From Flagellimonas algicola (lineage in GTDB: Bacteria > Bacteroidota > Bacteroidia > Flavobacteriales > Flavobacteriaceae): a DNA stretch of 64,000 nt. The DNA lies in contig NZ_VCNI01000001.1 in the NCBI RefSeq assembly GCF_005937185.1, positions 430,657 to 494,656 of the forward strand, given 5' to 3'. Positions 7,221 to 42,931 of the stretch are shown piece by piece. The notes under the pieces are model-generated. The model saw nothing but the letters and a program-made list of their open reading frames with translations, did no database searches and was not told the origin of the DNA. A program made the position numbers and the translations under genes. The stretch's first letter is position 1; each line of letters opens with the position of its first letter.

Positions 7221-10481
<3,261 letters not shown>

Positions 10482-29163: not shown

Positions 29164-29307
29164 GAATTTGAAATTTTAAGACAATTCTAGAATTTTGTGA
29201 TTTCTTCAAAAAATAAGGCCATTCTTTTGATTATTTAAATAATTGAGGTAATATTACTATTGATTTACAATTTTTATTGATTGGAATCAACTCAACTAAC
29301 TCTAACA

Positions 29308-29880
29308 ATGGCCTCTGAAAATTTGTTCATACAGACTCCTGTAGCAGTCTCTCATGATAGTAATGAGAGTTTTGAGGTCATACATGATTTATATTTCAAC
29401 AAACTTTTTCTAATTGCCCGAGGATACATTTCTTCCAAACAGGATGCCGAGGAAATTGTACAGGATGTTTTTGTGAAATTGTGGAAAAAGCAGGAAGAAA
29501 ATCATAGCATAGACAATCTGACGGGGTACCTGTTTCGAATGACCCGTAACGCATGCCTGGACTTTTTAAGAAGCAAAAAGAACGTACTGGCCATAGAGAC
29601 CAATCTCGAGCAGCGCCAGAATTTGCTGAACTTCCATGCACTTTCCAACGAAAGTGCCTCCTCCATAATCGAGGATGAATTGCATAAACAAGTTGACAAA
29701 GCCATTGACAGGCTTCCAAAAAAATGCAGACAAGTATTTGTCAAAAGCAGGAAAGAAGGCTTGAAACACAAAGAAATTGCCAAGGATCTCAACATTTCCA
29801 CCAAAACTGTTGAAAACCATATCTCCAAGGCGATCAGGCTTTTAAAGACCCATTTAAGGGATCACTTCACTTTCGAATAA
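29308..29880 (+). CDS. FecI-type ECF sigma factor of the SusCD locus
   Basis: A 190-residue ECF sigma factor from ATG 29308; an in-frame TTG at 29281 is less likely. Region 2 includes DAEEIVQDVFVKLWKKQ and the -10 helix LTGYLFRMTRNACLDFLRSKK. Region 4 includes DRLPKKCRQVFVKSRKEGLKHKEIAKDLNIS and a recognition helix in TKTVENHISKAIRLLK. It is followed 70 nt later by FecR and then by a SusC carrying an STN domain, the standard order for trans-envelope signalling: ligand binding at the outer membrane releases this sigma through FecR. It most likely drives the susC promoter and its own. Confidence 0.93.
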   Translation: MASENLFIQTPVAVSHDSNESFEVIHDLYFNKLFLIARGYISSKQDAEEIVQDVFVKLWKKQEENHSIDNLTGYLFRMTRNACLDFLRSKKNVLAIETNLEQRQNLLNFHALSNESASSIIEDELHKQVDKAIDRLPKKCRQVFVKSRKEGLKHKEIAKDLNISTKTVENHISKAIRLLKTHLRDHFTFE

Positions 29881-29913
29881 AAAAAAATGAACCTCAAGTA
29901 GGGGATAGGTAGT

Positions 29914-29938
29914 CTTTTATACGTCATTATTATAAAAG
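29914..29938 (+). other. Inverted repeat between sigma and FecR genes
   Basis: CTTTTATA (29914-29921) and TATAAAAG (29931-29938) are perfect inverted copies around 9 nt. An AT-rich stem without a T-tract is not a terminator; an operator or mRNA hairpin affecting the sigma/FecR ratio is possible. Confidence 0.35.
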
Positions 29939-29950
29939 GCACACGCTGCA

Positions 29951-30889
29951 ATGAGGAATAAGCACATTTACGATCTTATTGAAGAACGACTTGGTTTTCA
30001 CAAAAAGAAGCAAGTAATAGAATGGCTACTTAAAAACAAGAGAGCTCAAAAAAAGTACCATATAGCCAAGGCTGAACAGGTGGCCCTGTCTTTACGGGAA
30101 GACACCGGAGCGGCAAAACCAGTGCATCCAAGAAAAACTAGGGCATTGCTTAAGTATGCCGCCGTGCTTGTTGTGCTGTTTGGGCTTGCGTTCTATTTTA
30201 ACTATTCGGTAGACAGCACTGCTGTTGAGACCGAAAACGCCATGGTAATGATTGCTACTTCCATTGGGGAAAAAGAAGAAGTAGTGCTATCTGATGGAAC
30301 CAAGGTAATCGTAAATGCCAATAGCGTTTTGTCCTATCCTGCAAATTTCACCGGAAACACCAGAGAGGTAATGCTAAAAGGCGAAGCCTTTTTTGAAGTA
30401 ACTGAAAACAAGGAAAAACCATTTATTGTCAATACCAATGAAGGTATGGATATCAAGGTTTTGGGAACCGTTTTCAATGTAAAGTCCTATCCGGAAGACA
30501 AAAAAGTAGAGACCACCCTGGTAAGTGGTAAGGTTCAAGTTGTGGAGCGAAAGGACAATAAGACTGTTTTGCTTTACCCTTCGCAACGGGCAACCTATAA
30601 CAAATCTGATGATCGTTTGATTATCGATAAGGTTCAGACCGAACCTTTGATTTCTTGGAAAGATGGCAAGTTGATTTATGACGAAGCTCCATTAACGGAT
30701 GTAATAAAAGATTTGGAGCGGGAGTACGATGTGACTTTTTTGGTTAATTCCGAAGAACTGCTGGAATATAAATTTAAAGGTGTGTTTGATAATCTAAGTA
30801 TAGATCAGGTGTTGAGCCTGTTTGAATTATCATCACCCATAAAGTGTACCCTAAAACAAAACTATGTAATACTGGAAAAACAAAAATAA
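29951..30889 (+). CDS. FecR-family anti-sigma factor with DUF4974
   Basis: Inner-membrane anti-sigma protein of 312 residues. A short cytoplasmic N-terminus (about 65 residues) binds the sigma factor. One membrane helix lies at about 66-84 (LLKYAAVLVVLFGLAFYF). The periplasmic FecR domain follows (SDGTKVIVNANSVLSYPANF, GEAFFEVTENKEKPFIVNT, VLGTVFNVKSY, VSGKVQV), then the C-terminal DUF4974 (LTDVIKDLEREYDVTFLV ... VLSLFELSSP). The cytoplasmic part is shorter than in many FecR proteins. It connects the STN domain of the following SusC to the sigma factor at 29308. Confidence 0.93.
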   Translation: MRNKHIYDLIEERLGFHKKKQVIEWLLKNKRAQKKYHIAKAEQVALSLREDTGAAKPVHPRKTRALLKYAAVLVVLFGLAFYFNYSVDSTAVETENAMVMIATSIGEKEEVVLSDGTKVIVNANSVLSYPANFTGNTREVMLKGEAFFEVTENKEKPFIVNTNEGMDIKVLGTVFNVKSYPEDKKVETTLVSGKVQVVERKDNKTVLLYPSQRATYNKSDDRLIIDKVQTEPLISWKDGKLIYDEAPLTDVIKDLEREYDVTFLVNSEELLEYKFKGVFDNLSIDQVLSLFELSSPIKCTLKQNYVILEKQK

Positions 30890-30988
30890 AACCGAAAGAA
30901 TAAAAGTAAAAAGAGGGCGTCTCGCAAACACCCCCTTTGACTAATTACCCAATTGTAGCTAATTAAGTAACTAAAACCATTCAAAATT

Positions 30989-33900
30989 ATGAAAAAAAAG
31001 AGACTTTTTTTTTCGTCAATCCCCTTTATTCGGATTATGAAGATTTACTTTCTGTTGGTATGTTTTAGTATGGTAAAAGTCTTGGCATCAGACCTTTACG
31101 CTCAAAACATTACCCTAAACATGAAAAATGCCAAACTCAAAACGATTCTTAAAGAAATTGAGAAAAAGAGCGATTACAGCTTTTTTTACAACAGTAGCAT
31201 TGTCAATGTTGATAAAAAACGGTCGCTGAGTGTCAACAATACCGTTATTGATGACGCGTTGAGTGTACTGTTTTTGGAAACCGAGATTGATTACAGTTAT
31301 GTAAGGAACCAAATCATCCTTTTTCCCAAAAACCAGCCGGAGATCAAAGAAAAAATCGAGAACCTTTTACGCGAGAACGAGCAAAAGGTTAGCGCAAGTA
31401 TCAGCCCGGAAAAAATTAACGAGGTCTTAATTGACCACCTTCAGAACACCATTACCGGAACCGTTGTGGACGCAGCAACAAATATTGCTGTACCAGGAGC
31501 TTCGGTGGTTGTAAAGAACACAAACAATGGAACGGCCACCGATTTTGATGGCCTGTTTACCTTAGAAGCCGCGCCAGATGCCGTTTTGATTGTGAGCTAT
31601 TTGGGGTATAGAACCATGGAGGTGCCTGTAAATGGACAAACCAACCTGACCATTCAAATGCAAGAAGATGCTTCGCAGTTGGATGAAGTAGTGGTTGTGG
31701 GATATGGTACACAAAGGAAAGCTACGGTAACGGGAGCCGTTACAGCAGTAAAGGGTGCTGTACTGGAATCTTCCCCGGCCATTAGTGTTTCCAACTCCCT
31801 AGCTGGTCGATTACCCGGTGTGGTAATCATCCAAACCAGCGGTGAGCCTGGTAACGATGAATCAAACATCACCATTAGAGGTACAAATACTTTGGGTAAC
31901 AATCAGCCTTTGGTGGTTATTGATGGAATTCCAGATAGAGATGGTGGAATTGGACGTCTAAACCCAAATGACATTGAAAATATATCAGTACTAAAAGATG
32001 CTTCTGCAGCTATTTATGGTGCAAGAGCGGCAAATGGTGCGATCATTGTAACAACAAAGCAAGGGCAAACAGGAAAGCCAACGATTACCTATACCGCAGA
32101 TTTCGGATTGAGCCAACCCACTTTTGTGCCCGAAATGTCAAATGCTGTTGAGTATGCCGATATAAGAAATGAGTTACCTATTTACAACTTACCGGCCAGT
32201 GAGTGGACTGCTGCGTCTCAAGCCATCCGTACTAACGGAAGTTATACGCCGTTAGATCCTGGAACTGGAGTTGTTAATGCCGTATTTAGTCCTGCGGATG
32301 TGCAGGGTTATCTGAACCAATCTGACCCTTATCTCTATCCGGATAGTGATTGGTTTGATGCAACTTTTAAAGATTGGACAAGCCAAAGCAGACATAACCT
32401 GTCCATTTCAGGAGGTTCTGAGAAAATAAAGTATTTCTCCTCCTTGGGGTATTCCGATCAAGATGGTATTTATGAGAATTCAAGTACCCGATATCAACAA
32501 TACAATTTTAGGTTAAACACCACGGCAACTATAAACGACTATGTTACTGCAAAGATGGGCATGGCGTACAGAAAAGAGGATAGATCACTTCCTACTGAAA
32601 GTTCTGATGCCATTTTTAGAATGTTGATGAGAGGTAAGCCTACCGATGTTGCCGTTTGGCCGGGCGGACTTCCGGGTCCAGATATTGAAAATGGGCAGCA
32701 ACCAGTGGTAATCGCCACCAACGAAACAGGATATGATCGAGAGAAAAGGGATTATCTTCAATTTACAGGATCGGTGGATATCACCAACCCTTGGATTGAT
32801 GGTCTAAAATTGACCTTGTTGGCTGGAGTTGACCAAAGATTTGATCAAAGAAAATTATGGGAAACCCCTTGGGACCTCTATTTCTTGGACAGGGATACCT
32901 ATGTAAATACGGGTGAAGTAATTCTCAATGGAGCACAACGTTCCTCATTTACGGCCCCACAATTACAGCAATGGTCCAGAAATCAGTTGAATGTGAACCT
33001 TACGGCACTTTTGAATTATGAGAAATCTTTTGGAGACCACACAATTGGTGCGTTGGCCGGGGTAACTCGAGAGACCATTAATATTGAAGAACTTTTTGGT
33101 AGTAGATTAAACTTCCTTTCTGATGCCATTGACCAGCTAACCGTAGGTGGTGAAGATGGGCAAGTCGCAGATGGTGTAGCCTTCAATAGAAATAGATTAG
33201 GTTATTACGGAAGGGTTCAATACAACTTTAAGGAAAAATATTTGGCAGAGTTTATCTGGCGATATGATGGTTCCTATATATTCCCTGAAAATGATAGATT
33301 TGGGTTCTTCCCAGGATTCTTGGTAGGTTGGAATATTTCCAACGAGGAATTCTTCAATGTTGATTTTGTCAACAACTTAAAAATCAGAGCTTCATACGGA
33401 CAAATGGGTAATGATCAAGTGGCCTTTGATGATGATGGTGACGGTCTAATTTCCGATGATGAGCTTAGGGAATATGCATACCTTTCCATATACGATTTTA
33501 ATAGATATCCAATCAACGGAGCGGTACAGACCACTATATTAGAACCGCTGTTGGCCAATAACAACTTTACATGGGAGCGCGCCAACAACTTCAACATTGG
33601 TTTGGATGGTAGGCTCATGGACAACAAGATTGCCTTTGTGTTGGAGTATTTCTTGAACAAGCGGGATCAAATCCTGATTCAGCAAACCGGTTCCACTCCT
33701 GGTTCTTCAGGTATTGCTGATAGGTTACCTCCTGTAAATGCTGGAGAAGTGACCAACAAAGGATTTGAGTTTGCCTTGAACTATTTTGGCGGAGACCCCG
33801 ATGGATTTAGCTGGGATGCCGGAATCAATGGTGGTGTTGCAAAGAACACCGTGGATTTTATGGATGAAGTTCCAGGAGCGCCATCATATCAAAGAATGGA

Positions 33901-34570
33901 GGGCAAACCGATTAGAAGCCACTTTGTGTTCCAATCTGATGGAGCGTTTTTGGATGAGGCCGAAATAGCCGCCAATACCTTAGACTATAGTGGGGTTACT
34001 TCCCAGCTTAGACCTGGCGACATGAAATTTAAGGATATCAACAATGATGGCGTAATTGATGGGGACGATCAAGTTCGTTTGGATGAAAATGATACCCCTA
34101 CCTTTAACTTTGGTGCAACATTCAATGCATCCTATAAGAATTTTGATCTTTCAGTGTTATTGCAGGGAGCAACAGGTGCTTCCCTTCGTATCTTCACTGA
34201 ATCCGGTGACATAGGTAACTATTTAAAGTATAGCTATGATAACCGATGGAGTATAGACAATCCTAGCAGTGTACATCCAAGGTTGGCCAGTAGGGGAGAT
34301 ACCTATTATACAGGTGGATCCTTTGGTCAAAACTCTTATCTATTGTTCAGCAAGGATTACCTTAGAATTAAGAACGTGAGCGTGGGCTACAATTTCCCAA
34401 CTGATGTTATTGCACCATTTGGGCTATCAGCCGCAAGGGTGTACTTAAGTGGTCTGAACTTGGCAACCTTTGCCGAAAACAAGATTTTCGATCCGGAATC
34501 CAATGCCGGTAACGGAAGGGCTTATCCACAATCTAGGGTAATTAATGCAGGATTTAGTTTAACTTTTTAA
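30989..34570 (+). CDS. SusC/RagA-type TonB-dependent outer-membrane transporter with STN signalling domain
   Basis: A 1193-residue TonB-dependent transporter. A signal region (to about residue 40) is followed by an STN domain (about 45-110, NITLNMKNAKLKTILKEIEK), the part that talks to FecR. Next is a carboxypeptidase-regulatory-like beta-sandwich (about 150-225, ITGTVVDAATNIAVPGASV), then the plug starting QLDEVVVVGYGTQRKATVTG, with SVLKDASAAIYGARAANGAI, and a 22-strand barrel ending in INAGFSLTF with the terminal Phe. It pairs with the SusD gene 11 nt downstream to form a lid-and-barrel importer. The substrate is unknown; no polysaccharide enzymes accompany it. Confidence 0.96.
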   Translation: MKKKRLFFSSIPFIRIMKIYFLLVCFSMVKVLASDLYAQNITLNMKNAKLKTILKEIEKKSDYSFFYNSSIVNVDKKRSLSVNNTVIDDALSVLFLETEIDYSYVRNQIILFPKNQPEIKEKIENLLRENEQKVSASISPEKINEVLIDHLQNTITGTVVDAATNIAVPGASVVVKNTNNGTATDFDGLFTLEAAPDAVLIVSYLGYRTMEVPVNGQTNLTIQMQEDASQLDEVVVVGYGTQRKATVTGAVTAVKGAVLESSPAISVSNSLAGRLPGVVIIQTSGEPGNDESNITIRGTNTLGNNQPLVVIDGIPDRDGGIGRLNPNDIENISVLKDASAAIYGARAANGAIIVTTKQGQTGKPTITYTADFGLSQPTFVPEMSNAVEYADIRNELPIYNLPASEWTAASQAIRTNGSYTPLDPGTGVVNAVFSPADVQGYLNQSDPYLYPDSDWFDATFKDWTSQSRHNLSISGGSEKIKYFSSLGYSDQDGIYENSSTRYQQYNFRLNTTATINDYVTAKMGMAYRKEDRSLPTESSDAIFRMLMRGKPTDVAVWPGGLPGPDIENGQQPVVIATNETGYDREKRDYLQFTGSVDITNPWIDGLKLTLLAGVDQRFDQRKLWETPWDLYFLDRDTYVNTGEVILNGAQRSSFTAPQLQQWSRNQLNVNLTALLNYEKSFGDHTIGALAGVTRETINIEELFGSRLNFLSDAIDQLTVGGEDGQVADGVAFNRNRLGYYGRVQYNFKEKYLAEFIWRYDGSYIFPENDRFGFFPGFLVGWNISNEEFFNVDFVNNLKIRASYGQMGNDQVAFDDDGDGLISDDELREYAYLSIYDFNRYPINGAVQTTILEPLLANNNFTWERANNFNIGLDGRLMDNKIAFVLEYFLNKRDQILIQQTGSTPGSSGIADRLPPVNAGEVTNKGFEFALNYFGGDPDGFSWDAGINGGVAKNTVDFMDEVPGAPSYQRMEGKPIRSHFVFQSDGAFLDEAEIAANTLDYSGVTSQLRPGDMKFKDINNDGVIDGDDQVRLDENDTPTFNFGATFNASYKNFDLSVLLQGATGASLRIFTESGDIGNYLKYSYDNRWSIDNPSSVHPRLASRGDTYYTGGSFGQNSYLLFSKDYLRIKNVSVGYNFPTDVIAPFGLSAARVYLSGLNLATFAENKIFDPESNAGNGRAYPQSRVINAGFSLTF

Positions 34571-34581
34571 TAAAATTGGTT

Positions 34582-36459
34582 ATGAAAATTATGAAAAAAT
34601 GGGTTGCATTTGTTTTGATGGCCTTCGCGCTGTTTATTTCGTGCAACGACGACTTTTTGAACACAGAGCCCAAGGATAGTGTATCTTCGGATGCCACTTG
34701 GGGAGATGCCGCTTTGTCACAAGCTTTTGTTTTTGGAATTTATTCTGCACTAGGAAATGCAGGATTTGAAGAAGAAGGACTTTCAGCTTTGACGGATGAA
34801 GCAATGTTTACACACTCAGGAAGGGGAATTGATGTTCTTATGGAGGGAACTTCAACGCCGTCCAACCTTGGTAACGAGAGAATTCTACCAACTTGGGAAG
34901 AATTATATGGTGCCATCCGTAATGCCAACATTGCACTAACGGAGTTACCAGAAGCAACCTTTGACGATGCTGACCTGAAGGAAAGACTGATGGGAGAGAG
35001 CCATTTTTTAAGGGCTTATTATTATCATCAATTGTTAAGACACTTTGGAGGTGTGCCAATTATTGATGTGGCGTATAACCTCGGAGACGATTTCAGCATC
35101 GCTAGAAACACCTATGCGGAAACTGTTGACTTTATTATCAGTGATTTGGATACGGCTGCAGGTATGTTGGCCAGCAAGGACATCACAAAAGGAAGGGCAA
35201 GTCAATTGGCTGCCTTGGCCTTAAAGGCCCGCGTATTGTTATATGCGGCGAGTGATTTGCACCATGGGCCAACAGCCTCTGGTAATTCCGGAACATTAAG
35301 TTCCTTTTCCAATTTGGAATTGGTAGCCTATACTTCCGGCGATCAAGCCTCTCGCTGGCAAGCGGCCAAAACTGCGGCTAAAACTGTTTTGGACATGTCA
35401 TCAGGATATAAATTGGATTTAAATGCCCCGGTATCCGCCGAAGAAGGTGAAGCCAACTATGTGTCCCTTTCCATGGGAGGTGGAAGTAGCGTTGGTGATG
35501 CCGCTGCAGCTGTTGAATTGATTTGGGAGCGAACCCATACAGGTTTGTATACCGAAGAAAACGATTGGCCCTTGGGTGGTATCAATGTTGGGGTGAACAA
35601 TGGCCCTAATGGTTATCACAACTGGGCCGGAAATACCCCCATTCAGCAATTGGTGGATGACTACGAAATGATGGATGGTTCCCAGTTTGATTGGAATAAC
35701 CCTACTCATGCCGCAGACCCATTTGCCAATAGGGATCCACGTTTTTATGCCACCGTGCTATACGATGGTTCCGATTGGAAACCCCGCCCATCCGACGTAG
35801 TGAGTATAGATCCAGTGGACCAAATCCAGACAGGTTCTTATGATGATGGCGCTGGAGGAACAATCCCAGGGGTAGATACAAGACAGTCCCCAATTGAGGA
35901 TTGGAATGGAAGTAGAACCGGTTATTATGTAAGAAAGTTTATTGACCCGGATCCAGGATTAGTGGATAACCGTTCCAATGCGCAAGTGGTTCCATGGCCG
36001 TTCATAAGGTACACAGAAGTGGCCTTGAATTATGTGGAAGCCTGCATTGAAACTGGAGACGAAGCTGAAGCGATTGCGTGGCTGAACAGAATCCGTTACA
36101 GGGTTGGAATGCCTGCCGTTGCTGATACCGGAGATGCATTAAGAGACCGTTACAGAAATGAAAGACGGATTGAGTTGGCCTACGAGGAGCACCGATATTT
36201 TGATGCAAGACGTTGGATGATTCCGGAGGAAACCATTGGAAGGGGAATACAGGTAATGCAGACTTCGGCAACCGTTAAAGGCGGTCAAACAGCACATATA
36301 CCGTACCGACATGATAAGGATGTTTATGATTATCTATATGTACCCATTGATAATACAGACAATGAAACCCGTATTTGGGATGACAAAATGTATTACAGGG
36401 TAATTAGTAGGGATGAAATCAATCGTAACGAATTATTGGTACAAAACCCCGGATACTAA
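34582..36459 (+). CDS. SusD/RagB-type substrate-binding lipoprotein
   Basis: About 625 residues. ATG 34582 is used; ATG 34591 (MKKWVAFVLMAFALFISC) gives an equally good lipoprotein signal, and a TTG at 34576 is disregarded. The lipidated cysteine lies in LFISCNDDFLNTEP, typical of SusD (a DFL/EP motif right after the Cys). The helical TPR-like body is recognised by ALTELPEATFDDADLKERLMGESHFLRAYYYHQLLRHFGGVPI and the C-terminal ALNYVEACIETGDEAEAIAWLNRIRYRVGMP...RRIELAYEEHRYFDARRW in order. It covers the SusC barrel on the cell surface and binds the ligand. Transcription into downstream genes meets a hairpin at 36507. Confidence 0.95.
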   Translation: MKIMKKWVAFVLMAFALFISCNDDFLNTEPKDSVSSDATWGDAALSQAFVFGIYSALGNAGFEEEGLSALTDEAMFTHSGRGIDVLMEGTSTPSNLGNERILPTWEELYGAIRNANIALTELPEATFDDADLKERLMGESHFLRAYYYHQLLRHFGGVPIIDVAYNLGDDFSIARNTYAETVDFIISDLDTAAGMLASKDITKGRASQLAALALKARVLLYAASDLHHGPTASGNSGTLSSFSNLELVAYTSGDQASRWQAAKTAAKTVLDMSSGYKLDLNAPVSAEEGEANYVSLSMGGGSSVGDAAAAVELIWERTHTGLYTEENDWPLGGINVGVNNGPNGYHNWAGNTPIQQLVDDYEMMDGSQFDWNNPTHAADPFANRDPRFYATVLYDGSDWKPRPSDVVSIDPVDQIQTGSYDDGAGGTIPGVDTRQSPIEDWNGSRTGYYVRKFIDPDPGLVDNRSNAQVVPWPFIRYTEVALNYVEACIETGDEAEAIAWLNRIRYRVGMPAVADTGDALRDRYRNERRIELAYEEHRYFDARRWMIPEETIGRGIQVMQTSATVKGGQTAHIPYRHDKDVYDYLYVPIDNTDNETRIWDDKMYYRVISRDEINRNELLVQNPGY

Positions 36460-36506
36460 TTTGAATATTAAGTTTAGGTTTATTAGTTAATTTCGTTTGA
36501 GTTAGT

Positions 36507-36540
36507 GGAAAATCCGTCCTTTCATTAGGATGGATTTTTT
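36507..36540 (+). terminator. Putative terminator/attenuator between susD and the FG-GAP/haloperoxidase genes
   Basis: AAAATCCGTCC (36509-36519) pairs with GGATGGATTTT (36528-36538), with one G-U pair and an 8-nt loop, followed by further T residues to 36540. The next ATG is only 12 nt beyond, so partial read-through would set a lower level for the three downstream genes unless they have their own promoter. Confidence 0.6.
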
Positions 36541-36551
36541 CCATTCCAGAT

Positions 36552-39500
36552 ATGATACATAACCTCAGAAATATTACTTCAGCTTGGGCACTTTGCCTAC
36601 TGTTACTTTTTGGATGCAAAGAAGAATCCAATGAATCAGTAAATCCCAAAGAGTACCAAGTTGAGGAGAGGTTGTTTACCCTGCTTTCCCCTGAACAAAC
36701 CAATATCCATTTTCAAAATCAGCTGCAAGAGAATCTCAACATCAATGTTTTGATGTATGAATATCTCTATAACGGCGGTGGGGTTGCCGTTGGTGATTAT
36801 AATGGGGATGGGAATATCGACATCTATTTTTCTGCTAATTTGGGTGACAACCGATTGTACCTAAATAGAGGGGACATGCGGTTTGAAGATGTCACCTTGG
36901 CTTCTGGGACTACTGGAAGAAAAGGACCTTGGAAAACTGGGGTAAGTTCTGTGGACATCAATAGTGATGGCAAGTTGGACATTTACCTTTGTTATTCTGG
37001 CGCCTTACCGGACGTGAAGCGAAAGAATCAATTGTTCATCAATAAAGGGAACAATGAAAATGGAATACCCATTTTTGAGGAAAGTGCCAAGCAGTATGGA
37101 TTGGATACCGCGGCCTTTAGCAATCAAGCTCATTTTTTTGACTATGACCACGACGGAGACTTGGATGTGTTGATGCTCAACCACAACCCAAAATCCTTAC
37201 CTGTATTAAATGAGACCAGTACCAAGAACCAATTGAAAATTGATGATCCGCATCGCGGTCTTCGTCTGTTCAAACAAACGAATGGTTTTTTTCAAGATGT
37301 AACCCCAAATTCTGGGGTAAGTGGTTCGGCCTTGAGCTATGGGTTGGGATTGTGTATTAGCGATGTCAACAATGACGGTTGGGAAGATTTTTACGTGTCC
37401 AATGATTATACCATCCCCGACTATCTCTATATAAACAATGGCGACGGCACTTTTACAGACCAGTTGAAAACCAGCATGGGCCATACCAGCCATTTTTCCA
37501 TGGGAAATAACATTGCGGATATTGACAACGATGGGTGGATGGACATCTATACCTTGGATATGCTACCGGAGGATAACCGCAGACAAAAACTACTACTTTC
37601 CCCGGACAATTATGAAAAGTTTGATTTAAATATACGTAGCGGATTCCATTACCAATACATGCGTAATATGTTGCAACGCAACAATGGAAATGGCACCTAC
37701 AGTGAGATAGGGCAGTTGGCCGGAGTTTCCAATACAGATTGGAGCTGGTCTGCTTTGTTGGCCGATTTTGACAATGACGGTTGGAAAGATCTCTATGTTA
37801 CCAATGGATATTTTAGGGACTATACCAACCTGGATTTCATCAATTATATGGAAGATTATGTCCAGTCCAAAGGGAGATTGGTTAGGGAAGACGTATTGGA
37901 GATTATCAAACAAATGCCCTCAACGGATTTGTTAAACTATATGTTCATCAATAAAGGCGGATTGGAATTTGAGAACAAAACCCAAGCCTTGGGGTTTGGT
38001 CAGGTGTCCAACAGCAATGGCGCCGCTTATGCGGATTTGGACAATGATGGCGATTTGGACTTGATCGTGAACAACATCAACAAGCCTGCATTTATTTATC
38101 AAAATGAGTCCAATAAAAAGTATAATTACCTTCAAGTAAAATTGAAAGGGAAGCCTGGGAATCTACGTGGTTTGGGCGCAAAAGTAAGCTTGTATTCCCA
38201 AGATGGAATCCAAATCCAAGAACAAATGACCACCAGGGGCTATCTATCGTCCGTTTCAGATGTTATGCATTTTGGTCTAGGTGATGTGTCTTCCGTGGAT
38301 TCACTAAAAATAAGATGGAGTAGTGGTCAAGTGCAGATGTTGACCCATGTTTCGCCCAATCAAGTGTTACAACTGGAAGAGTCCAACGCGGTTCCTTCAG
38401 CGGATAAAATCACGCAAAGTTCAGGGCAGTTCTTTAAAGAAGTTACCGCACCAATTGATTATGCCAACCAACAAGTGCAGATCAATGATTTTAAGCGACA
38501 ATCACTACTGCTCGAAGAGTTTTCCCATAACGGCCCGTGCCTTAGCAAAGGTGATGTTAACAATGATGGGAGGGAAGATGTTTTTATTGGCGGAGCCCAA
38601 AACCAATCAGCTGCGCTATTTGTGCAAGATGACACCGGTCGTTTTCAAAGACTGAATATTCCAGATTTTGATACTGACAAGGAATTTCACGATTCCGAAG
38701 CGTCTTTTTTGGATGTTAATGCTGATGGTAATCCGGACCTTTATGTGGCCAGCGGAGGTTATCACCATTTGGATCCTAATGACGAACTTTTGCAAGATCG
38801 CTTGTATTTAGGTGATGGAAAAGGAAATTTCTCCAAAAAAGAAGATGCACTCCCCGCAATGCATGTTAGCTCAGGTTGTATGGCATTCAAGGATATTAAC
38901 GGAGACGGATACCCAGATTTGTTTGTTGGAGGAAGGGTGGTTCCCGGTCGGTACCCGGAAACTCCGGAAAGTTTTATTCTAATGAATGACGGGAAGGGCA
39001 ATTTTAAGGATCAGACCACACAATTGGCACCTAAAATTTCCAAGTTGGGAATGGTTACAGATGCTGTATGGGCAGATTTGGATGCTAATGGAAAACATGA
39101 ACTGGTTGTAGTAGGGGAGTGGATGCCCATTACCGTTTTTTCTTTGGATCAGGGTAAACTAGTGGAATCAACAGAACATTTTTTTGGAAATTCCTATCAG
39201 GGATGGTGGAACACTATACATATTGAGGATTTGAACAAAGATGGGACACCGGACATTGTTGTGGGCAATATGGGGACAAATACCCAGTTTCAGGCCTCGG
39301 CAACGGAACCGCTGGAACTCTATTATGATGATTTTGATCAAAATGGTGCGGTAGACCCCATATTCTGCTTTTACATTCAAGGAAAAAGTTATCCCTTCAT
39401 AACCAGGGATGAACTGCTTGGACAATTGACTCATTTAAGACCCAAATTCAATAGCTATAGCAGCTATGCTGACGCCAACTTATCAGAAATTTTTGGCGAA

Positions 39501-39899
39501 GAGACTACTGCAAAAGGTAAAAAGCTATCTGTGAATCACATGAAAACAACTTTGTTTATGGGAACACAAGATGGAACGTTCGAAGAAATAGAGCTTCCCA
39601 GACAAACCGAATTTTCTCCAGTAAATGAGATTATTTCTATGGATTTTGATCAGGACGGACATCTAGACCTCTTGTTGCTGGGCAACAATCATCGTTTTAA
39701 ATTACGATTGGGAAAATTTGATGCGAACTACGGAACATTATTATTGGGAGATGGGAATGGGAACTTTTCGTATGCAGAACAGACCACGTCCGGATTGCGC
39801 ATAGATGGGGTTGTGGAAAGTGCCGTGATTTTGAATGACCTATTGCTACTGGGTATACAGGGTGATTCCCTGAAAGCCTATCAATTTGAAGCCAATTAA
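36552..39899 (+). CDS. Large FG-GAP/VCBS-repeat lipoprotein with ASPIC/UnbV domain
   Basis: A 1115-residue exported lipoprotein; the signal ends LLLLFGCKEESNE with Cys near residue 22. More than a dozen calcium-type loops of the form D-x-[ND]-x-D-G-x-x-D are visible (GDYNGDGNIDIYF, FDYDHDGDLDVLML, ADIDNDGWMDIYT, ADLDNDGDLDLIV, GDVNNDGREDVFI, KDINGDGYPDLFV), as in integrin-like beta-propeller blades. The UnbV segment (YLQVKLKGKPGNLRGLGAKV ... MHFGLG) lies mid-protein at about 530-600, between two sets of blades. Such proteins are abundant in marine Bacteroidota and commonly sit beside SusCD; the role is unassigned, with calcium-stabilised surface scaffold or binding protein as likely options. 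Confidence 0.88.
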   Translation: MIHNLRNITSAWALCLLLLFGCKEESNESVNPKEYQVEERLFTLLSPEQTNIHFQNQLQENLNINVLMYEYLYNGGGVAVGDYNGDGNIDIYFSANLGDNRLYLNRGDMRFEDVTLASGTTGRKGPWKTGVSSVDINSDGKLDIYLCYSGALPDVKRKNQLFINKGNNENGIPIFEESAKQYGLDTAAFSNQAHFFDYDHDGDLDVLMLNHNPKSLPVLNETSTKNQLKIDDPHRGLRLFKQTNGFFQDVTPNSGVSGSALSYGLGLCISDVNNDGWEDFYVSNDYTIPDYLYINNGDGTFTDQLKTSMGHTSHFSMGNNIADIDNDGWMDIYTLDMLPEDNRRQKLLLSPDNYEKFDLNIRSGFHYQYMRNMLQRNNGNGTYSEIGQLAGVSNTDWSWSALLADFDNDGWKDLYVTNGYFRDYTNLDFINYMEDYVQSKGRLVREDVLEIIKQMPSTDLLNYMFINKGGLEFENKTQALGFGQVSNSNGAAYADLDNDGDLDLIVNNINKPAFIYQNESNKKYNYLQVKLKGKPGNLRGLGAKVSLYSQDGIQIQEQMTTRGYLSSVSDVMHFGLGDVSSVDSLKIRWSSGQVQMLTHVSPNQVLQLEESNAVPSADKITQSSGQFFKEVTAPIDYANQQVQINDFKRQSLLLEEFSHNGPCLSKGDVNNDGREDVFIGGAQNQSAALFVQDDTGRFQRLNIPDFDTDKEFHDSEASFLDVNADGNPDLYVASGGYHHLDPNDELLQDRLYLGDGKGNFSKKEDALPAMHVSSGCMAFKDINGDGYPDLFVGGRVVPGRYPETPESFILMNDGKGNFKDQTTQLAPKISKLGMVTDAVWADLDANGKHELVVVGEWMPITVFSLDQGKLVESTEHFFGNSYQGWWNTIHIEDLNKDGTPDIVVGNMGTNTQFQASATEPLELYYDDFDQNGAVDPIFCFYIQGKSYPFITRDELLGQLTHLRPKFNSYSSYADANLSEIFGEETTAKGKKLSVNHMKTTLFMGTQDGTFEEIELPRQTEFSPVNEIISMDFDQDGHLDLLLLGNNHRFKLRLGKFDANYGTLLLGDGNGNFSYAEQTTSGLRIDGVVESAVILNDLLLLGIQGDSLKAYQFEAN

Positions 39900-39908
39900 C
39901 TGTCGTGC

Positions 39909-41252
39909 ATGAAAAAAGTGATTTCAAAATCATACTGGATTGTTGCGGTTGCAGTCTTCATAAATGCCTGTAGTGAACGTAAAGAATACACAGAACAGGA
40001 TGTAGTCCTGGAATGGGCAAAAATGGCCACGTATATTACCCAATTTACCCCGGCAAATTCCCCAACTTTTGCTTCCCGTGGGTTTGGTTACATTGGGCTG
40101 ACCATGTATGAGTCTGTGGTACCTGGTTTTGAAAGCAATAATTCAATGCAAGGCCAACTCAATGGTTTGGATCAACTACCACAACCGGAAAAGGATAAAA
40201 CCTATAATTGGGAACTATCCCTGAACGCTGGACAAGCCCAAATTTTACGGCAGATTTATCTGCAAACTTCAGATGAGAACAAGGCCCGTATAGATTCGTT
40301 GGAACAGGAAATATACCGTAGTTATTCAGACAAGATCAACGATTTGGAAATTGTGGAACGATCCGTTTCCTACGGAAAGGAAGTAGCGAATGCCATTTTT
40401 GAATGGTCAAAATCTGATGGAGGGCACCGTGGGTATCTTTATAATTTTGATAAAGAAATGATTCACCCAGAGCGACCAGGTTCCTGGAAACCTCCATTGT
40501 TTGCTCAGTCATTCAGTCATTATCCCTTGCATCCGCATTGGGGTGAAAACCGAAGGTTTTTAAAGGAAAATGCAGCATTGGAAGTGCCATATATGATTCC
40601 GTACGATACCATACCAGGCTCTCCATACTATGAGGAATATATGGAAGTCTATAAAAAGGATTTGGCACTCACCCAAGAGGAAAAAGAAGCCGCCATTTGG
40701 TGGGGAGATGACCCTGATGTATCATTTACCCCCCCGGGTCACTCCTATTATTATGTAACATTGGCTGTAGAAAAGAAACTTCCCAGTATGATTGAGGCAG
40801 CCGAAGCCTATGCCAAAACAAGCATTGCTGTGGCAGATGCCTTTATCAACTGTTGGGAATGGAAGTATCACTTTTTCTCTGAGCGGCCCAATACCTTTAT
40901 CCCCAAATTTATTGACCAGGAATGGGAGTCTTTTTGGCCCGACCCTCCATTTCCAGCTTTTCCATCGGGTCACGCTATCAACGCCGGCGCTATGGCTACA
41001 GTTTTGGAGCATGAGTTTGGAAAAGAAGTCCAGATTACGGACAGGGCCCATGAAGGAAGGGAGCGGGACGAAGTTAGGGATACAGATTTTGTGGTACGAT
41101 CCTTCAACTCCTTTTGGGAAGCGGCCCAGGAAACAGCGGATTCTAGGTTTTATGGTGGTATTCACACACCACAGGACAATAGGGTGGGCTTGGATGAAGG
41201 GATGAAAATAGCTCAAAATGTAATCAACTTAAACTGGAGGAAATCAGACTGA
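39909..41252 (+). CDS. Vanadium-dependent haloperoxidase / PAP2-superfamily lipoprotein
   Basis: A 447-residue exported helical protein with a lipobox-like FINAC (Cys21). The complete three-part active site of the vanadium-haloperoxidase/acid phosphatase superfamily is present: K-x6-RP at 319-327 (KYHFFSERP), PSGH at 352-355 and SR-x5-H-x3-D at 412-423 (SRFYGGIHTPQD). His355 and His419 would be the acid/base and the vanadate/phosphate ligand. The overall arrangement (long helical N-domain, FWPDPPFPAFPSGHA) is that of bacterial 'vanadium-dependent haloperoxidase' family members; sequence alone cannot separate halide oxidation from phosphatase activity. It lies 9 nt after the large FG-GAP gene and 2 nt before the second. 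Confidence 0.82.
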   Translation: MKKVISKSYWIVAVAVFINACSERKEYTEQDVVLEWAKMATYITQFTPANSPTFASRGFGYIGLTMYESVVPGFESNNSMQGQLNGLDQLPQPEKDKTYNWELSLNAGQAQILRQIYLQTSDENKARIDSLEQEIYRSYSDKINDLEIVERSVSYGKEVANAIFEWSKSDGGHRGYLYNFDKEMIHPERPGSWKPPLFAQSFSHYPLHPHWGENRRFLKENAALEVPYMIPYDTIPGSPYYEEYMEVYKKDLALTQEEKEAAIWWGDDPDVSFTPPGHSYYYVTLAVEKKLPSMIEAAEAYAKTSIAVADAFINCWEWKYHFFSERPNTFIPKFIDQEWESFWPDPPFPAFPSGHAINAGAMATVLEHEFGKEVQITDRAHEGRERDEVRDTDFVVRSFNSFWEAAQETADSRFYGGIHTPQDNRVGLDEGMKIAQNVINLNWRKSD

Positions 41253-41254
41253 TT

Positions 41255-42931
41255 ATGCACAAATTTTCCCTAGCCATTCATTTGGTCCTTTTATGTCCTT
41301 TCCTTCTTCCAGCACAGAAAATGTTCACGGATGTCACCGAGGATGCCGGAATTGAACACCAGTTTTTGGTTTATGAGGGAACCTTTGGAGGTGGTGCTGT
41401 AGCTTTCGATATAAATAACGATGGACTAGAGGATCTCTACATTACAGGCGGTACAGCATCGGATGTATTATATCTGAATCAAGGGGAGGGGAAGTTCAAA
41501 AACGTATTTGAGGAATCTGGTTTGGAATTGACTTCGGATTATGTTACCCAAGGTGTGGCCAGTGCAGATGTAAATAAAGATGGATGGCGGGACCTTTTTA
41601 TAACCACCATAAATTCCGAGGATAATACTACCGTAATTCCAAGGGCAAAAAATCTACTTTTTATCAATAATGGGGATGGCACTTTCAGGGATGCTACCAC
41701 TTCCTATGGTTTAGAGGAGTTTAACTCCTTTAGTACGGGCGCTTCATTTGGGGATGTAAATGCGGATGGCTATCCAGATTTGTACGTGGGAAATTATTTT
41801 GTGGAGTTCACAGGAAAATTGGGCATACTTAAGGATGCCACCATCGCCAGTGCCCATCAGACATCAAAGGACTATCTGTTCATCAATAAAGAAGGAAAGC
41901 ATTTTGAAAACCAGTATGAGGAGTACGATCTTGGCCATAAAGGCTTTGGTTTTGGAAGTGTTTTTACGGATTATGATAATGATGGCGACCAGGACATTTT
42001 TGTCCATAACGATTTTGGGTATAAGGCTGTTCCCAACTTTCTATACAGAAATAGGTCACCTTGGAAGGGTTTCAAGGATGTAAGCGAAGAAAAAGAAATG
42101 GATCTTAAGATCAATGCCATGGGGGCGGCGGTAGGCGATTATAATGAAGATGGCCTGCTGGATTATTTTGTGACCAACATCAAGTTCAACTATTTAATGC
42201 AAAACCACGGTGGCAACAAACCCTTTGTGAATGTGGCCAAAGAAACGGGCGCCTACAGTTTTGCCATTAGTTGGGGAGCGAATTTTGCCGATTTTGACCA
42301 TGACACTGATTTGGACATTTACGTGTCCAATGGGGATTTAAATCCCAATTGTAATCCTATGGCCAATTTTTATTACGACAATCAGGATGGAAGTTTTATT
42401 GAAAATGCCAGTTTAAAGGGAATCAATGACCCGGGAGTGGGCAGGGGTTCTGTGGTATTTGATATGGACAACGATGGGGATTTGGATATATTGGTAGTCA
42501 ACCAAAAGCCCATTCATGAAAACTACCGAGTACCTTCCGTTACCAAATTGTTCCGAAATGATGGGGCAAAAGGGAACTGGTTTAAAGTTGCCCTTAAGGG
42601 TACAGCATCCGAAGCCAATGGCATTGGTGCTAGGGTAGAGATATTCGCGGATGGGAAACACATGATTCGGGAAATTGACGGGGGTAATTCCAGCCATATG
42701 TCCCAAAATTCCACAATAGCCCATTTTGGTCTGGGAACGGCCAACACGGTTGAAAGGATTGTGGTGACATGGGCTGGCGGTAAAAAACAAGAACTCACCA
42801 ACCAAAAAGCGAACACTTCCATTTTAATCATGGAAAATCCCGAAAACAAAACCTCCTTCTGGATTTATGCCGCTATAGCACTAGCAGCCATAATTACTGC
42901 TTGGCAATTTCTTAAGCTTAAAAAACGATAA
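41255..42931 (+). CDS. FG-GAP/VCBS-repeat protein with UnbV domain and C-terminal membrane anchor
   Basis: A 558-residue exported protein. The signal peptide ends near LLPAQK. Seven calcium-type loops (FDINNDGLEDLYI, ADVNKDGWRDLFI, GDVNADGYPDLYV, TDYDNDGDQDIFV, GDYNEDGLLDYFV, ADFDHDTDLDIYV, FDMDNDGDLDILV) suggest one seven-bladed propeller. A UnbV domain follows (WFKVALKGTASEANGIGARV ... IAHFGLG). The protein ends in a hydrophobic helix (WIYAAIALAAIITAWQFL) and a basic tail KLKKR, unlike its lipoprotein homologue at 36552. It would be held in the inner membrane facing the periplasm, or be processed by a sortase-like system. It is the last gene of the operon and converges on the orphan gene with 11 nt between. 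Confidence 0.87.
   Translation: MHKFSLAIHLVLLCPFLLPAQKMFTDVTEDAGIEHQFLVYEGTFGGGAVAFDINNDGLEDLYITGGTASDVLYLNQGEGKFKNVFEESGLELTSDYVTQGVASADVNKDGWRDLFITTINSEDNTTVIPRAKNLLFINNGDGTFRDATTSYGLEEFNSFSTGASFGDVNADGYPDLYVGNYFVEFTGKLGILKDATIASAHQTSKDYLFINKEGKHFENQYEEYDLGHKGFGFGSVFTDYDNDGDQDIFVHNDFGYKAVPNFLYRNRSPWKGFKDVSEEKEMDLKINAMGAAVGDYNEDGLLDYFVTNIKFNYLMQNHGGNKPFVNVAKETGAYSFAISWGANFADFDHDTDLDIYVSNGDLNPNCNPMANFYYDNQDGSFIENASLKGINDPGVGRGSVVFDMDNDGDLDILVVNQKPIHENYRVPSVTKLFRNDGAKGNWFKVALKGTASEANGIGARVEIFADGKHMIREIDGGNSSHMSQNSTIAHFGLGTANTVERIVVTWAGGKKQELTNQKANTSILIMENPENKTSFWIYAAIALAAIITAWQFLKLKKR

What the first reader, a model, noticed from the sequence alone, without database searches (positions are those of the whole stretch)
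29308..42931. SusCD signalling locus coupled to a haloperoxidase-type enzyme and two FG-GAP/UnbV proteins: candidate undescribed uptake system
ECF sigma, FecR, SusC with STN, SusD, then three genes packed within 9 and 2 nt. Instead of the glycosidases, sulfatases or peptidases that normally reveal a SusCD substrate, the partners are a PAP2/vanadium-haloperoxidase lipoprotein with a full active site and two calcium-loop propeller proteins with UnbV domains. I infer a surface machine that binds a ligand, modifies it by dephosphorylation or halogen chemistry, and imports it. The substrate may be a phosphorylated or halogenated marine metabolite.
Basis: partly seen in the sequence, partly recalled or inferred. 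Interest (0 to 1): 0.65.

Follow-up and report, generated by a model that had tools for sequence, protein, structure and literature searches.

The report
Conserved sugar-uptake operon with haloperoxidase
This is a real five-gene surface uptake operon, found in the same order across many bacteria of the phylum Bacteroidota; it most likely imports a galactose-containing sugar, and it carries a haloperoxidase-type enzyme whose job there is still unknown.

Summary
In detail: ECF sigma, FecR, STN-SusC, SusD, a 1115-aa FG-GAP/UnbV lipoprotein (FGL), a 447-aa haloperoxidase-type lipoprotein (VHPO) and a 558-aa FG-GAP/UnbV protein (FGs), with gaps of 70, 99, 5, 92, 9 and 2 nt.

They do: 48 of 57 named loci with enough flank carry all five genes in exactly this order, across several families, marine and non-marine. 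The signalling module is not core: FecR and STN occur together (7/7) or not at all (0/50); GntR/LacI-type regulators replace them.

I do not support the inferred ligand, a halogenated or phosphorylated marine metabolite. Recurrent neighbours in relatives are sugar genes: galactokinase within 15 kb in 7 of 46 genomes (0.3 expected), LacZ-type GH2, LacI. Best reading: a SusCD importer of a galactose-containing saccharide with FG-GAP accessory proteins. VHPO is a full-length relative of the Zobellia iodoperoxidase (4CIT), whose gene sits in a sister-type locus; peroxidase or phosphatase is open. FGs probably faces the periplasm. My searches of an open-access library found no description of the cassette.

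The parts
29281..29880 (+). ECF sigma factor (Sig70_bacteroi1 subfamily); likely true start is ATG 29308
   Evidence: TIGR02985 E 3e-49; ORF
29951..30889 (+). FecR-type anti-sigma factor (FecR + FecR_C)
   Evidence: PF04773 and PF16344; 70 nt after the sigma gene
30989..34570 (+). SusC/RagA TonB-dependent receptor, 1193 aa, with N-terminal STN signalling domain
   Evidence: TIGR04056 893 bits; STN PF07660; most orthologs are about 1055-1103 aa without STN
34576..36459 (+). SusD/RagB surface lipoprotein, 627 aa (lipobox ...FISC-NDDF)
   Evidence: PF07980 E 4e-58; N-terminus
36552..39899 (+). FGL: 1115-aa FG-GAP lipoprotein with two propeller regions and a UnbV/ASPIC domain between them
   Evidence: FG-GAP_3 E 5e-77, UnbV_ASPIC at 540-606; closest solved fold CRTAC1 9etn; C22 invariant
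39909..41252 (+). VHPO: vanadium-haloperoxidase-family lipoprotein, 447 aa, intact vanadate pocket
   Evidence: 4CIT full-length E 8e-50; PAP2; residues; fold search
41255..42931 (+). FGs: 558-aa FG-GAP/UnbV protein with signal peptide and C-terminal membrane helix with basic tail
   Evidence: PF13517 and PF07593; C-terminal TM in 67/73 homologs; alignment

Best explanation
The five genes SusC-SusD-FGL-VHPO-FGs form one conserved outer-membrane uptake unit of Bacteroidota that captures and imports a galactose-containing saccharide. In the window it has been placed under ECF-sigma/FecR trans-envelope control. Proposed working: SusD closes the SusC barrel over the ligand; FGL, a lipoprotein with two FG-GAP propeller regions, helps bind or present the ligand at the surface, as SusE/F-type accessory proteins do; TonB drives import; FGs, anchored in the inner membrane, acts on the periplasmic side; in the window, occupied SusC signals through its STN domain to FecR and the ECF sigma factor to raise expression. 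The VHPO lipoprotein keeps an intact vanadate/phosphate site; I judge peroxidase chemistry near the cell surface likelier than phosphatase. Shown: gene content, order, co-conservation, regulator swap, family and active-site residues of VHPO, sugar-gene neighbourhood in relatives. Inferred: the ligand class, the surface position of FGL and VHPO, the roles of FGL and FGs, the in vivo reaction of VHPO.
For: 48 of 57 full-flank loci have the exact order SusC-SusD-FGL-VHPO-FGs and 49 have all genes, across Flavobacteriaceae, Saprospiraceae/Lewinellaceae, Cyclobacteriaceae, Leadbetterellaceae, Chitinophagaceae and Fulvivirgaceae. FGL-VHPO and VHPO-FGs gaps mostly lie between about -30 and +20 nt. 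Clustering of all neighbours gave, besides clade-specific synteny, GntR/LacI-sensor regulators (19 loci), a 3-keto-disaccharide-hydrolase family (7), LacI (6), galactokinase (4) and GH2 (3) (identities). galK lies within 15 kb of the cassette in 7 of 46 genomes from 5 genus-level lineages (0.30 expected; 5 or more by chance about 1e-5). Clear cases: cassette with GalK-GH2-GlpD in Emticicia (L247), LacI-GalK-GlpD in Jiulongibacter (L181), GlpD-GH36-GH2 in a Saprospiraceae MAG (L203), LacI-GalT-GH2 in L187. In the window's own genome FGL-size paralogs mostly follow SusC-SusD, and its second VHPO-FGL locus carries LacI, GH65, GH13 and a sodium:solute symporter. FecR accompanies STN-SusC 7/7 and SusC without STN 0/50.
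Against: In the window itself no sugar-catabolic gene touches the cassette, and its best galK match lies on another contig (G000:C7:389032). The Maribacter-type loci lie beside a TetR/TolC/RND block and show no sugar enzyme. One relative has araBAD (L165), another GH92/GH28/GH115 (L199/L047), so the sugar may not be galactose everywhere. No protein of the FGL type has been shown to bind a glycan as far as I know. The FGL and VHPO models have only mean pLDDT 75.
Confidence: 0.5

Rival explanations
1. One reading: the cassette binds a halogenated or phosphorylated marine metabolite, VHPO dehalogenates, halogenates or dephosphorylates it, and SusCD imports the product.
For: VHPO is always inside the unit (the survey was seeded with VHPO) with an intact vanadate/phosphate pocket; it is a lipoprotein, so possibly at the surface. 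An alkaline phosphatase lies near one locus (L201).
Against: Neighbours in relatives are sugar genes, not dehalogenases or phosphonate genes. The cassette also occurs in non-marine genera. VHPOs of the sister clade sit with SusCD-FGL next to trehalase, GH65/GH13 or GH51 genes, so VHPO does not track one special ligand.
Confidence: 0.12
2. VHPO works as a haloperoxidase that consumes H2O2 and halide (protection from algal oxidative burst, or antimicrobial hypohalite) while the cell feeds; it is co-expressed with sugar uptake but does not touch the sugar. This is compatible with the best explanation and refines one part of it.
For: Closest characterised relative is the Zobellia iodoperoxidase ZgVIPO1, which lies in a sister-type FGL-FGL-FGL-VHPO locus. 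VHPO-FGL pairs accompany SusCD loci for different sugars, as expected of a general helper. Zobellia vIPO3 rises on the brown alga A. nodosum (PMC9296495). [quoted passage not shown]
Against: The enzyme of the window clade is only about 30-35% identical to ZgVIPO1 and forms its own clade. Many hosts are non-marine, where iodide and bromide are scarce. NapH3 (8cxl), a VHPO homolog whose recorded reaction is a rearrangement rather than halogenation, is among the fold hits.
Confidence: 0.35
3. VHPO is a phosphatase of the PAP2 superfamily that removes phosphate from the ligand or a released product outside the inner membrane.
For: PAP2 domain and phosphatase motif K-x6-RP / PSGH / SR-x5-H-x3-D. 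Glycerol-3-phosphate dehydrogenase lies within 15 kb of the cassette in three genomes.
Against: The whole 447-aa chain matches haloperoxidases, and acid phosphatases match only about 220 residues weakly. The Trp three residues before the vanadate Lys (W316), which the 4CIT and chloroperoxidase alignments share, is invariant here.
Confidence: 0.2
4. The proximity of galactose genes is a by-product of Bacteroidota genomes grouping sugar genes with any SusCD pair; the cassette's real ligand is another sugar, such as an arabinose- or uronate-containing oligosaccharide, or differs between species.
For: araA, an FGGY kinase (araB-like), aldose epimerase and a symporter in L165, pectinesterase in L211, pectate lyase in L171, GH92/GH28/GH115 in L199/L047. 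The GntR-LacI-sensor regulator has the make-up of arabinose-type regulators (AraR, from memory).
Against: galK recurs in five genus-level lineages, including the araBAD case (13 kb, L165 genome). The same regulator family stands next to GH36 and GalK with SusD and two FG-GAP genes in a second Emticicia locus (L265).
Confidence: 0.25

Closest known systems
SusC/SusD TonB-dependent glycan uptake systems (polysaccharide utilisation loci)
   Same: SusC (TIGR04056) and SusD (PF07980/PF14322) pair, co-directional accessory lipoprotein genes, sugar genes next to it in relatives.
   Different: In the window no glycoside hydrolase in the operon; fixed accessory set of two FG-GAP/UnbV proteins and a haloperoxidase instead of SusE/F/G.
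FecI/FecR/FecA-type trans-envelope signalling (ECF sigma, anti-sigma, STN receptor)
   Same: ECF sigma, FecR with FecR_C and STN-SusC in order.
   Different: Only a minority of orthologous loci have it; others use GntR/LacI-type regulators and a SusC without STN.
Zobellia galactanivorans vanadium iodoperoxidase ZgVIPO1 (PDB 4CIT/4USZ) and its locus
   Same: Full-length homology, same pocket residues, lipoprotein, gene directly after FG-GAP/UnbV 1100-aa genes (L050).
   Different: 30-35% identity and a separate clade; ZgVIPO1-type loci have two or three FGL genes and a 300-aa protein after VHPO, no FGs.
CRTAC1 / ASPIC-UnbV FG-GAP propeller proteins
   Same: FGL and FGs carry FG-GAP repeats and UnbV_ASPIC; CRTAC1 is the best solved match to FGL.
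   Different: FGL is a bacterial lipoprotein with a second propeller region; FGs ends in a membrane helix.
Bacteroidota trehalose/maltose-type SusCD loci with FGL-FGL-VHPO (L034, L056, L058, L060; own genome L045/L272)
   Same: SusCD, FGL and VHPO in one direction, with sugar enzymes and transporters.
   Different: Enzymes for trehalose or alpha-glucosides; VHPO of the ZgVIPO1 side of the tree.

Membership tests
SusCD TonB-dependent nutrient uptake system | Adjacent SusC/RagA receptor and SusD/RagB lipoprotein genes | tested here: met
   TIGR04056 893 bits; PF07980 E 4e-58; 5-nt gap
SusCD TonB-dependent nutrient uptake system | Import of a defined ligand through SusC | not testable with these tools
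   needs growth or binding assays
Polysaccharide utilisation locus (strict sense) | Carbohydrate-active enzyme genes in the same locus | tested here: not met
   none among the seven genes; nearest found is a GH2 gene at 7236-10481, about 19 kb before the sigma gene. Some orthologous loci do have GH2, GH36 or GH92 beside the cassette
ECF/FecR/STN cell-surface signalling | ECF sigma + FecR anti-sigma + STN domain on the receptor | tested here: met
   FecR and STN-SusC occur together 7/7, SusC without STN 0/50
Vanadium-dependent haloperoxidase | Full-length fold of the family | tested here: met
   4CIT phmmer E 8e-50 over residues 49-441; Foldseek 4usz E 6e-16, CPO 1vnc E 2e-7
Vanadium-dependent haloperoxidase | Vanadate-binding and catalytic residues K, R, S-G-H, R, H | tested here: met
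   K319, R326, S353-G354-H355, R413, H419, all invariant in 12 orthologs
Vanadium-dependent haloperoxidase | Halide oxidation with H2O2 | not testable with these tools
   needs enzyme assay
PAP2 acid phosphatase | Single-domain phosphatase fold of about 220-250 aa | tested here: not met
   acid phosphatases match only about 220 of 447 residues, E 0.4 or worse
UnbV/ASPIC FG-GAP propeller family (CRTAC1-like) | FG-GAP repeats plus UnbV_ASPIC domain | tested here: met
   PF13517 and PF07593 above cut-off in both proteins; 9etn best fold for FGL
Five-gene cassette SusC-SusD-FGL-VHPO-FGs | Same five genes, same order, in relatives | tested here: met
   48 of 57 full-flank named loci, plus L047 and L116-L126

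The most novel reading that the evidence does not exclude
The cassette is a dedicated importer of galactosyl-glycerols (head groups of plant, algal and cyanobacterial galactolipids, or floridoside-type solutes). Cassette-linked galK, beta-galactosidase (GH2), alpha-galactosidase (GH36) and glycerol-3-phosphate dehydrogenase would release and channel galactose and glycerol (Emticicia, Jiulongibacter, Saprospiraceae loci), and VHPO would have a generic role in SusCD feeding that explains why bacterial iodoperoxidases exist.
Probability: 0.15. Interest if true: 0.8.

Novelty: new variant of a known kind. Interest (0 to 1): 0.5.

Why it matters
FG-GAP/UnbV proteins and haloperoxidase-type enzymes are common in Bacteroidota genomes and, as far as I know, have no agreed role there. 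This work places them in one conserved SusCD unit, ties that unit to galactose metabolism in several lineages, and gives a genomic context for the crystallised Zobellia iodoperoxidase. It yields a short list of ligands and two enzyme assays that could settle what these bacterial haloperoxidases do. It also shows one uptake cassette carrying two interchangeable kinds of regulation.

Tried and rejected
Halogen or phosphonate partners: none among recurrent neighbours. A conserved downstream operon in Maribacter and near relatives (polyprenyl synthetase, ECF sigma, TetR, TolC, RND) was considered as part of the system and rejected: it is absent outside that clade. GH2 at window 7236-10481 as the cassette's enzyme: only 36-39% identical to cassette-linked GH2s, so not an evident ortholog. 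Own-genome galK near the cassette: not so. Bacteroidota promoter motif TTTG-N-TANNTTTG: two window hits, none before the operon, not above chance; sigma-70 promoter-like hits not above chance. GlpD within the first 56 loci: not significant (1 cluster). L246, L248 and L249, first thought to continue cassette loci, are on contigs of other lengths. Literature: no paper held SusD with UnbV and haloperoxidase, SusD with UnbV and FG-GAP, or four of vanadium/haloperoxidase/Bacteroidetes/SusD/FG-GAP; the few hits for looser terms did not describe the cassette. The ZgVIPO1 paper itself is not held.
Full report
OBSERVATION. The window holds, on the + strand, an ECF sigma gene (29281-29880; ATG at 29308), fecR (29951-30889), susC (30989-34570), susD (34576-36459), a 1115-aa FG-GAP/UnbV gene (FGL, 36552-39899), a 447-aa PAP2/haloperoxidase-type gene (VHPO, 39909-41252) and a 558-aa FG-GAP/UnbV gene (FGs, 41255-42931). 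The gaps are 70, 99, 5, 92, 9 and 2 nt.

THE ENZYME. The best solved relative over almost the whole chain is the vanadium iodoperoxidase of Zobellia galactanivorans (4CIT, E 7.8e-50). A predicted model (mean pLDDT 75) matches 4usz/4cit first, then Curvularia chloroperoxidase, then NapH3 and a bacterial chloroperoxidase; acid phosphatases match only about half the chain and weakly. All vanadate-pocket residues are present and invariant in 12 orthologs from several families. So by descent and fold it is a haloperoxidase-family protein. Whether it oxidises halides in life is not shown, and NapH3 is a warning that family members can do other chemistry.

CO-CONSERVATION. Sampling whole genomes and 80 named loci gave a clear answer. 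Among 57 named loci with enough flank, 48 have exactly SusC-SusD-FGL-VHPO-FGs and 49 have all the genes nearby; in a few loci FGL is not between SusD and VHPO (it is divergent in L204 and L207). The carriers span Flavobacteriaceae, Saprospiraceae/Lewinellaceae, Cyclobacteriaceae, Leadbetterellaceae, Chitinophagaceae, Fulvivirgaceae and others. In a maximum-likelihood tree the window VHPO falls in a clade of 21 rows that all belong to such cassettes (100/99). The ZgVIPO1 type is a separate clade whose loci read FGL-FGL-VHPO followed by a 300-aa protein; the Zobellia locus itself, identified by its full-length match to 4CIT, has three FGL genes before VHPO (L050).

REGULATION. SusC with an STN extension (about 1166-1191 aa) is preceded by fecR in 7 of 7 loci, and SusC without it in 0 of 50. 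The other loci carry, often divergently, a GntR-type regulator with a LacI-like sensor (19 loci) or a LacI regulator (6 loci). The alternative regulators belong to sugar-sensing families.

LIGAND. In the window nothing beside the cassette names a substrate. In relatives it does. Clustering all non-cassette neighbours of the 80 loci, without choosing families, gave as recurrent groups beyond single-clade synteny: the GntR/LacI regulators, a 3-keto-disaccharide-hydrolase family, LacI, galactokinase and GH2 (identities). A whole-genome distance test in 46 genomes found galK within 15 kb of the cassette in 7 (L181, L162, L232, L207, L187, L165, L210), from five genus-level lineages, against 0.30 expected; five or more by chance is about 1e-5. 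The 46 were chosen for contig length and low redundancy, after some galK cases had been seen; with all 80 loci as denominator the figure is nearer 2e-4 (my arithmetic). Named arrangements: cassette with divergent FGL-GalK-GH2-GlpD in Emticicia aquatica (L247); cassette, LacI, GalK, GlpD in Jiulongibacter (L181); cassette, GlpD, GH36 alpha-galactosidase, GH2 in a Saprospiraceae MAG (L203); LacI, GalT, GH2 in L187. A second Emticicia locus has SusD, two FG-GAP genes, GalK, GH36, the same regulator family and a symporter (L265). Galactose is therefore the best single guess. The repeated glycerol-3-phosphate dehydrogenase suggests, more weakly, galactosyl-glycerols. Not every carrier fits: L165 has arabinose genes, L199/L047 has GH92, GH28 and GH115, and the window's own galK is on another contig.

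OTHER FG-GAP LOCI. The window's genome has about a dozen FGL-size paralogs, nearly all directly after a SusC-SusD pair. Its other FGL-VHPO locus carries LacI, a GH65 phosphorylase, a GH13 amylase and a sodium:solute symporter. In relatives the same sister-type locus precedes trehalase, PfkB and GH13 genes. I infer that FGL is a general SusCD accessory, plausibly for ligand binding, and that VHPO is a helper used with several sugars rather than a ligand-specific modifier.

PLACEMENT. SusD, FGL and VHPO have lipoprotein signals (the cysteine is invariant in 12 VHPO and 12 FGL orthologs). FGs has an ordinary signal peptide, and 67 of 73 homologs have a C-terminal membrane helix with basic tail, so it is more likely fixed in the inner membrane and facing the periplasm. 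FGL is predicted as two propeller regions with UnbV between, closest to CRTAC1 (model confidence moderate).

VERDICT. A real, widely conserved SusCD cassette that the searched open-access literature does not describe. It works like a sugar-uptake locus with unusual fixed partners; it is not a strict polysaccharide utilisation locus, because no carbohydrate enzyme is in the window's operon. Limits: ORFs were called by a simple rule, neighbour enrichment was partly post hoc, the survey was seeded with VHPO, the structure models are of moderate confidence, and the literature search covered only open-licence papers.

Noticed in passing
window 7236-10481 (+): LacZ-type GH2 beta-galactosidase, 36-39% identical to the GH2 enzymes that sit beside the cassette in relatives; not an evident ortholog.
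   Followed up: partly
G000:C7:1355020-1377000 (L045, L272): The window's genome has a second FGL-VHPO locus of the ZgVIPO1 type, with SusCD, LacI, GH65 phosphorylase, GH13 amylase and sodium:solute symporter.
   Followed up: yes
L033, L034, L036, L053, L056, L058, L060: SusC-SusD-FGL-FGL-VHPO loci on the ZgVIPO1 side of the tree; trehalase was confirmed in L056 and L060 (with PfkB, GH13 and MFS genes in L056), so these look like trehalose or related disaccharide loci.
   Followed up: partly
L212 9959-12700; L229 9983-17700: Thermoflexibacter ruber and Sediminibacterium magnilacihabitans carry one VHPO of each clade side by side or nearly so.
   Followed up: no
G000 (12 sites): About a dozen FGL-size FG-GAP/UnbV paralogs in one genome, nearly all right after a SusC-SusD pair: an undescribed SusCD accessory family worth its own survey.
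   Followed up: partly
L045 7080-7982 and equivalents (about 300 aa): Protein of unknown family (no Pfam hit for the L056 homolog) fixed directly downstream of ZgVIPO1-type VHPO genes; reads by eye like a membrane-anchored ligand-binding domain.
   Followed up: no
L127-L130: VHPOs 42-48% identical to the window's, in the family coded f24, stand alone without SusCD or FG-GAP genes.
   Followed up: no
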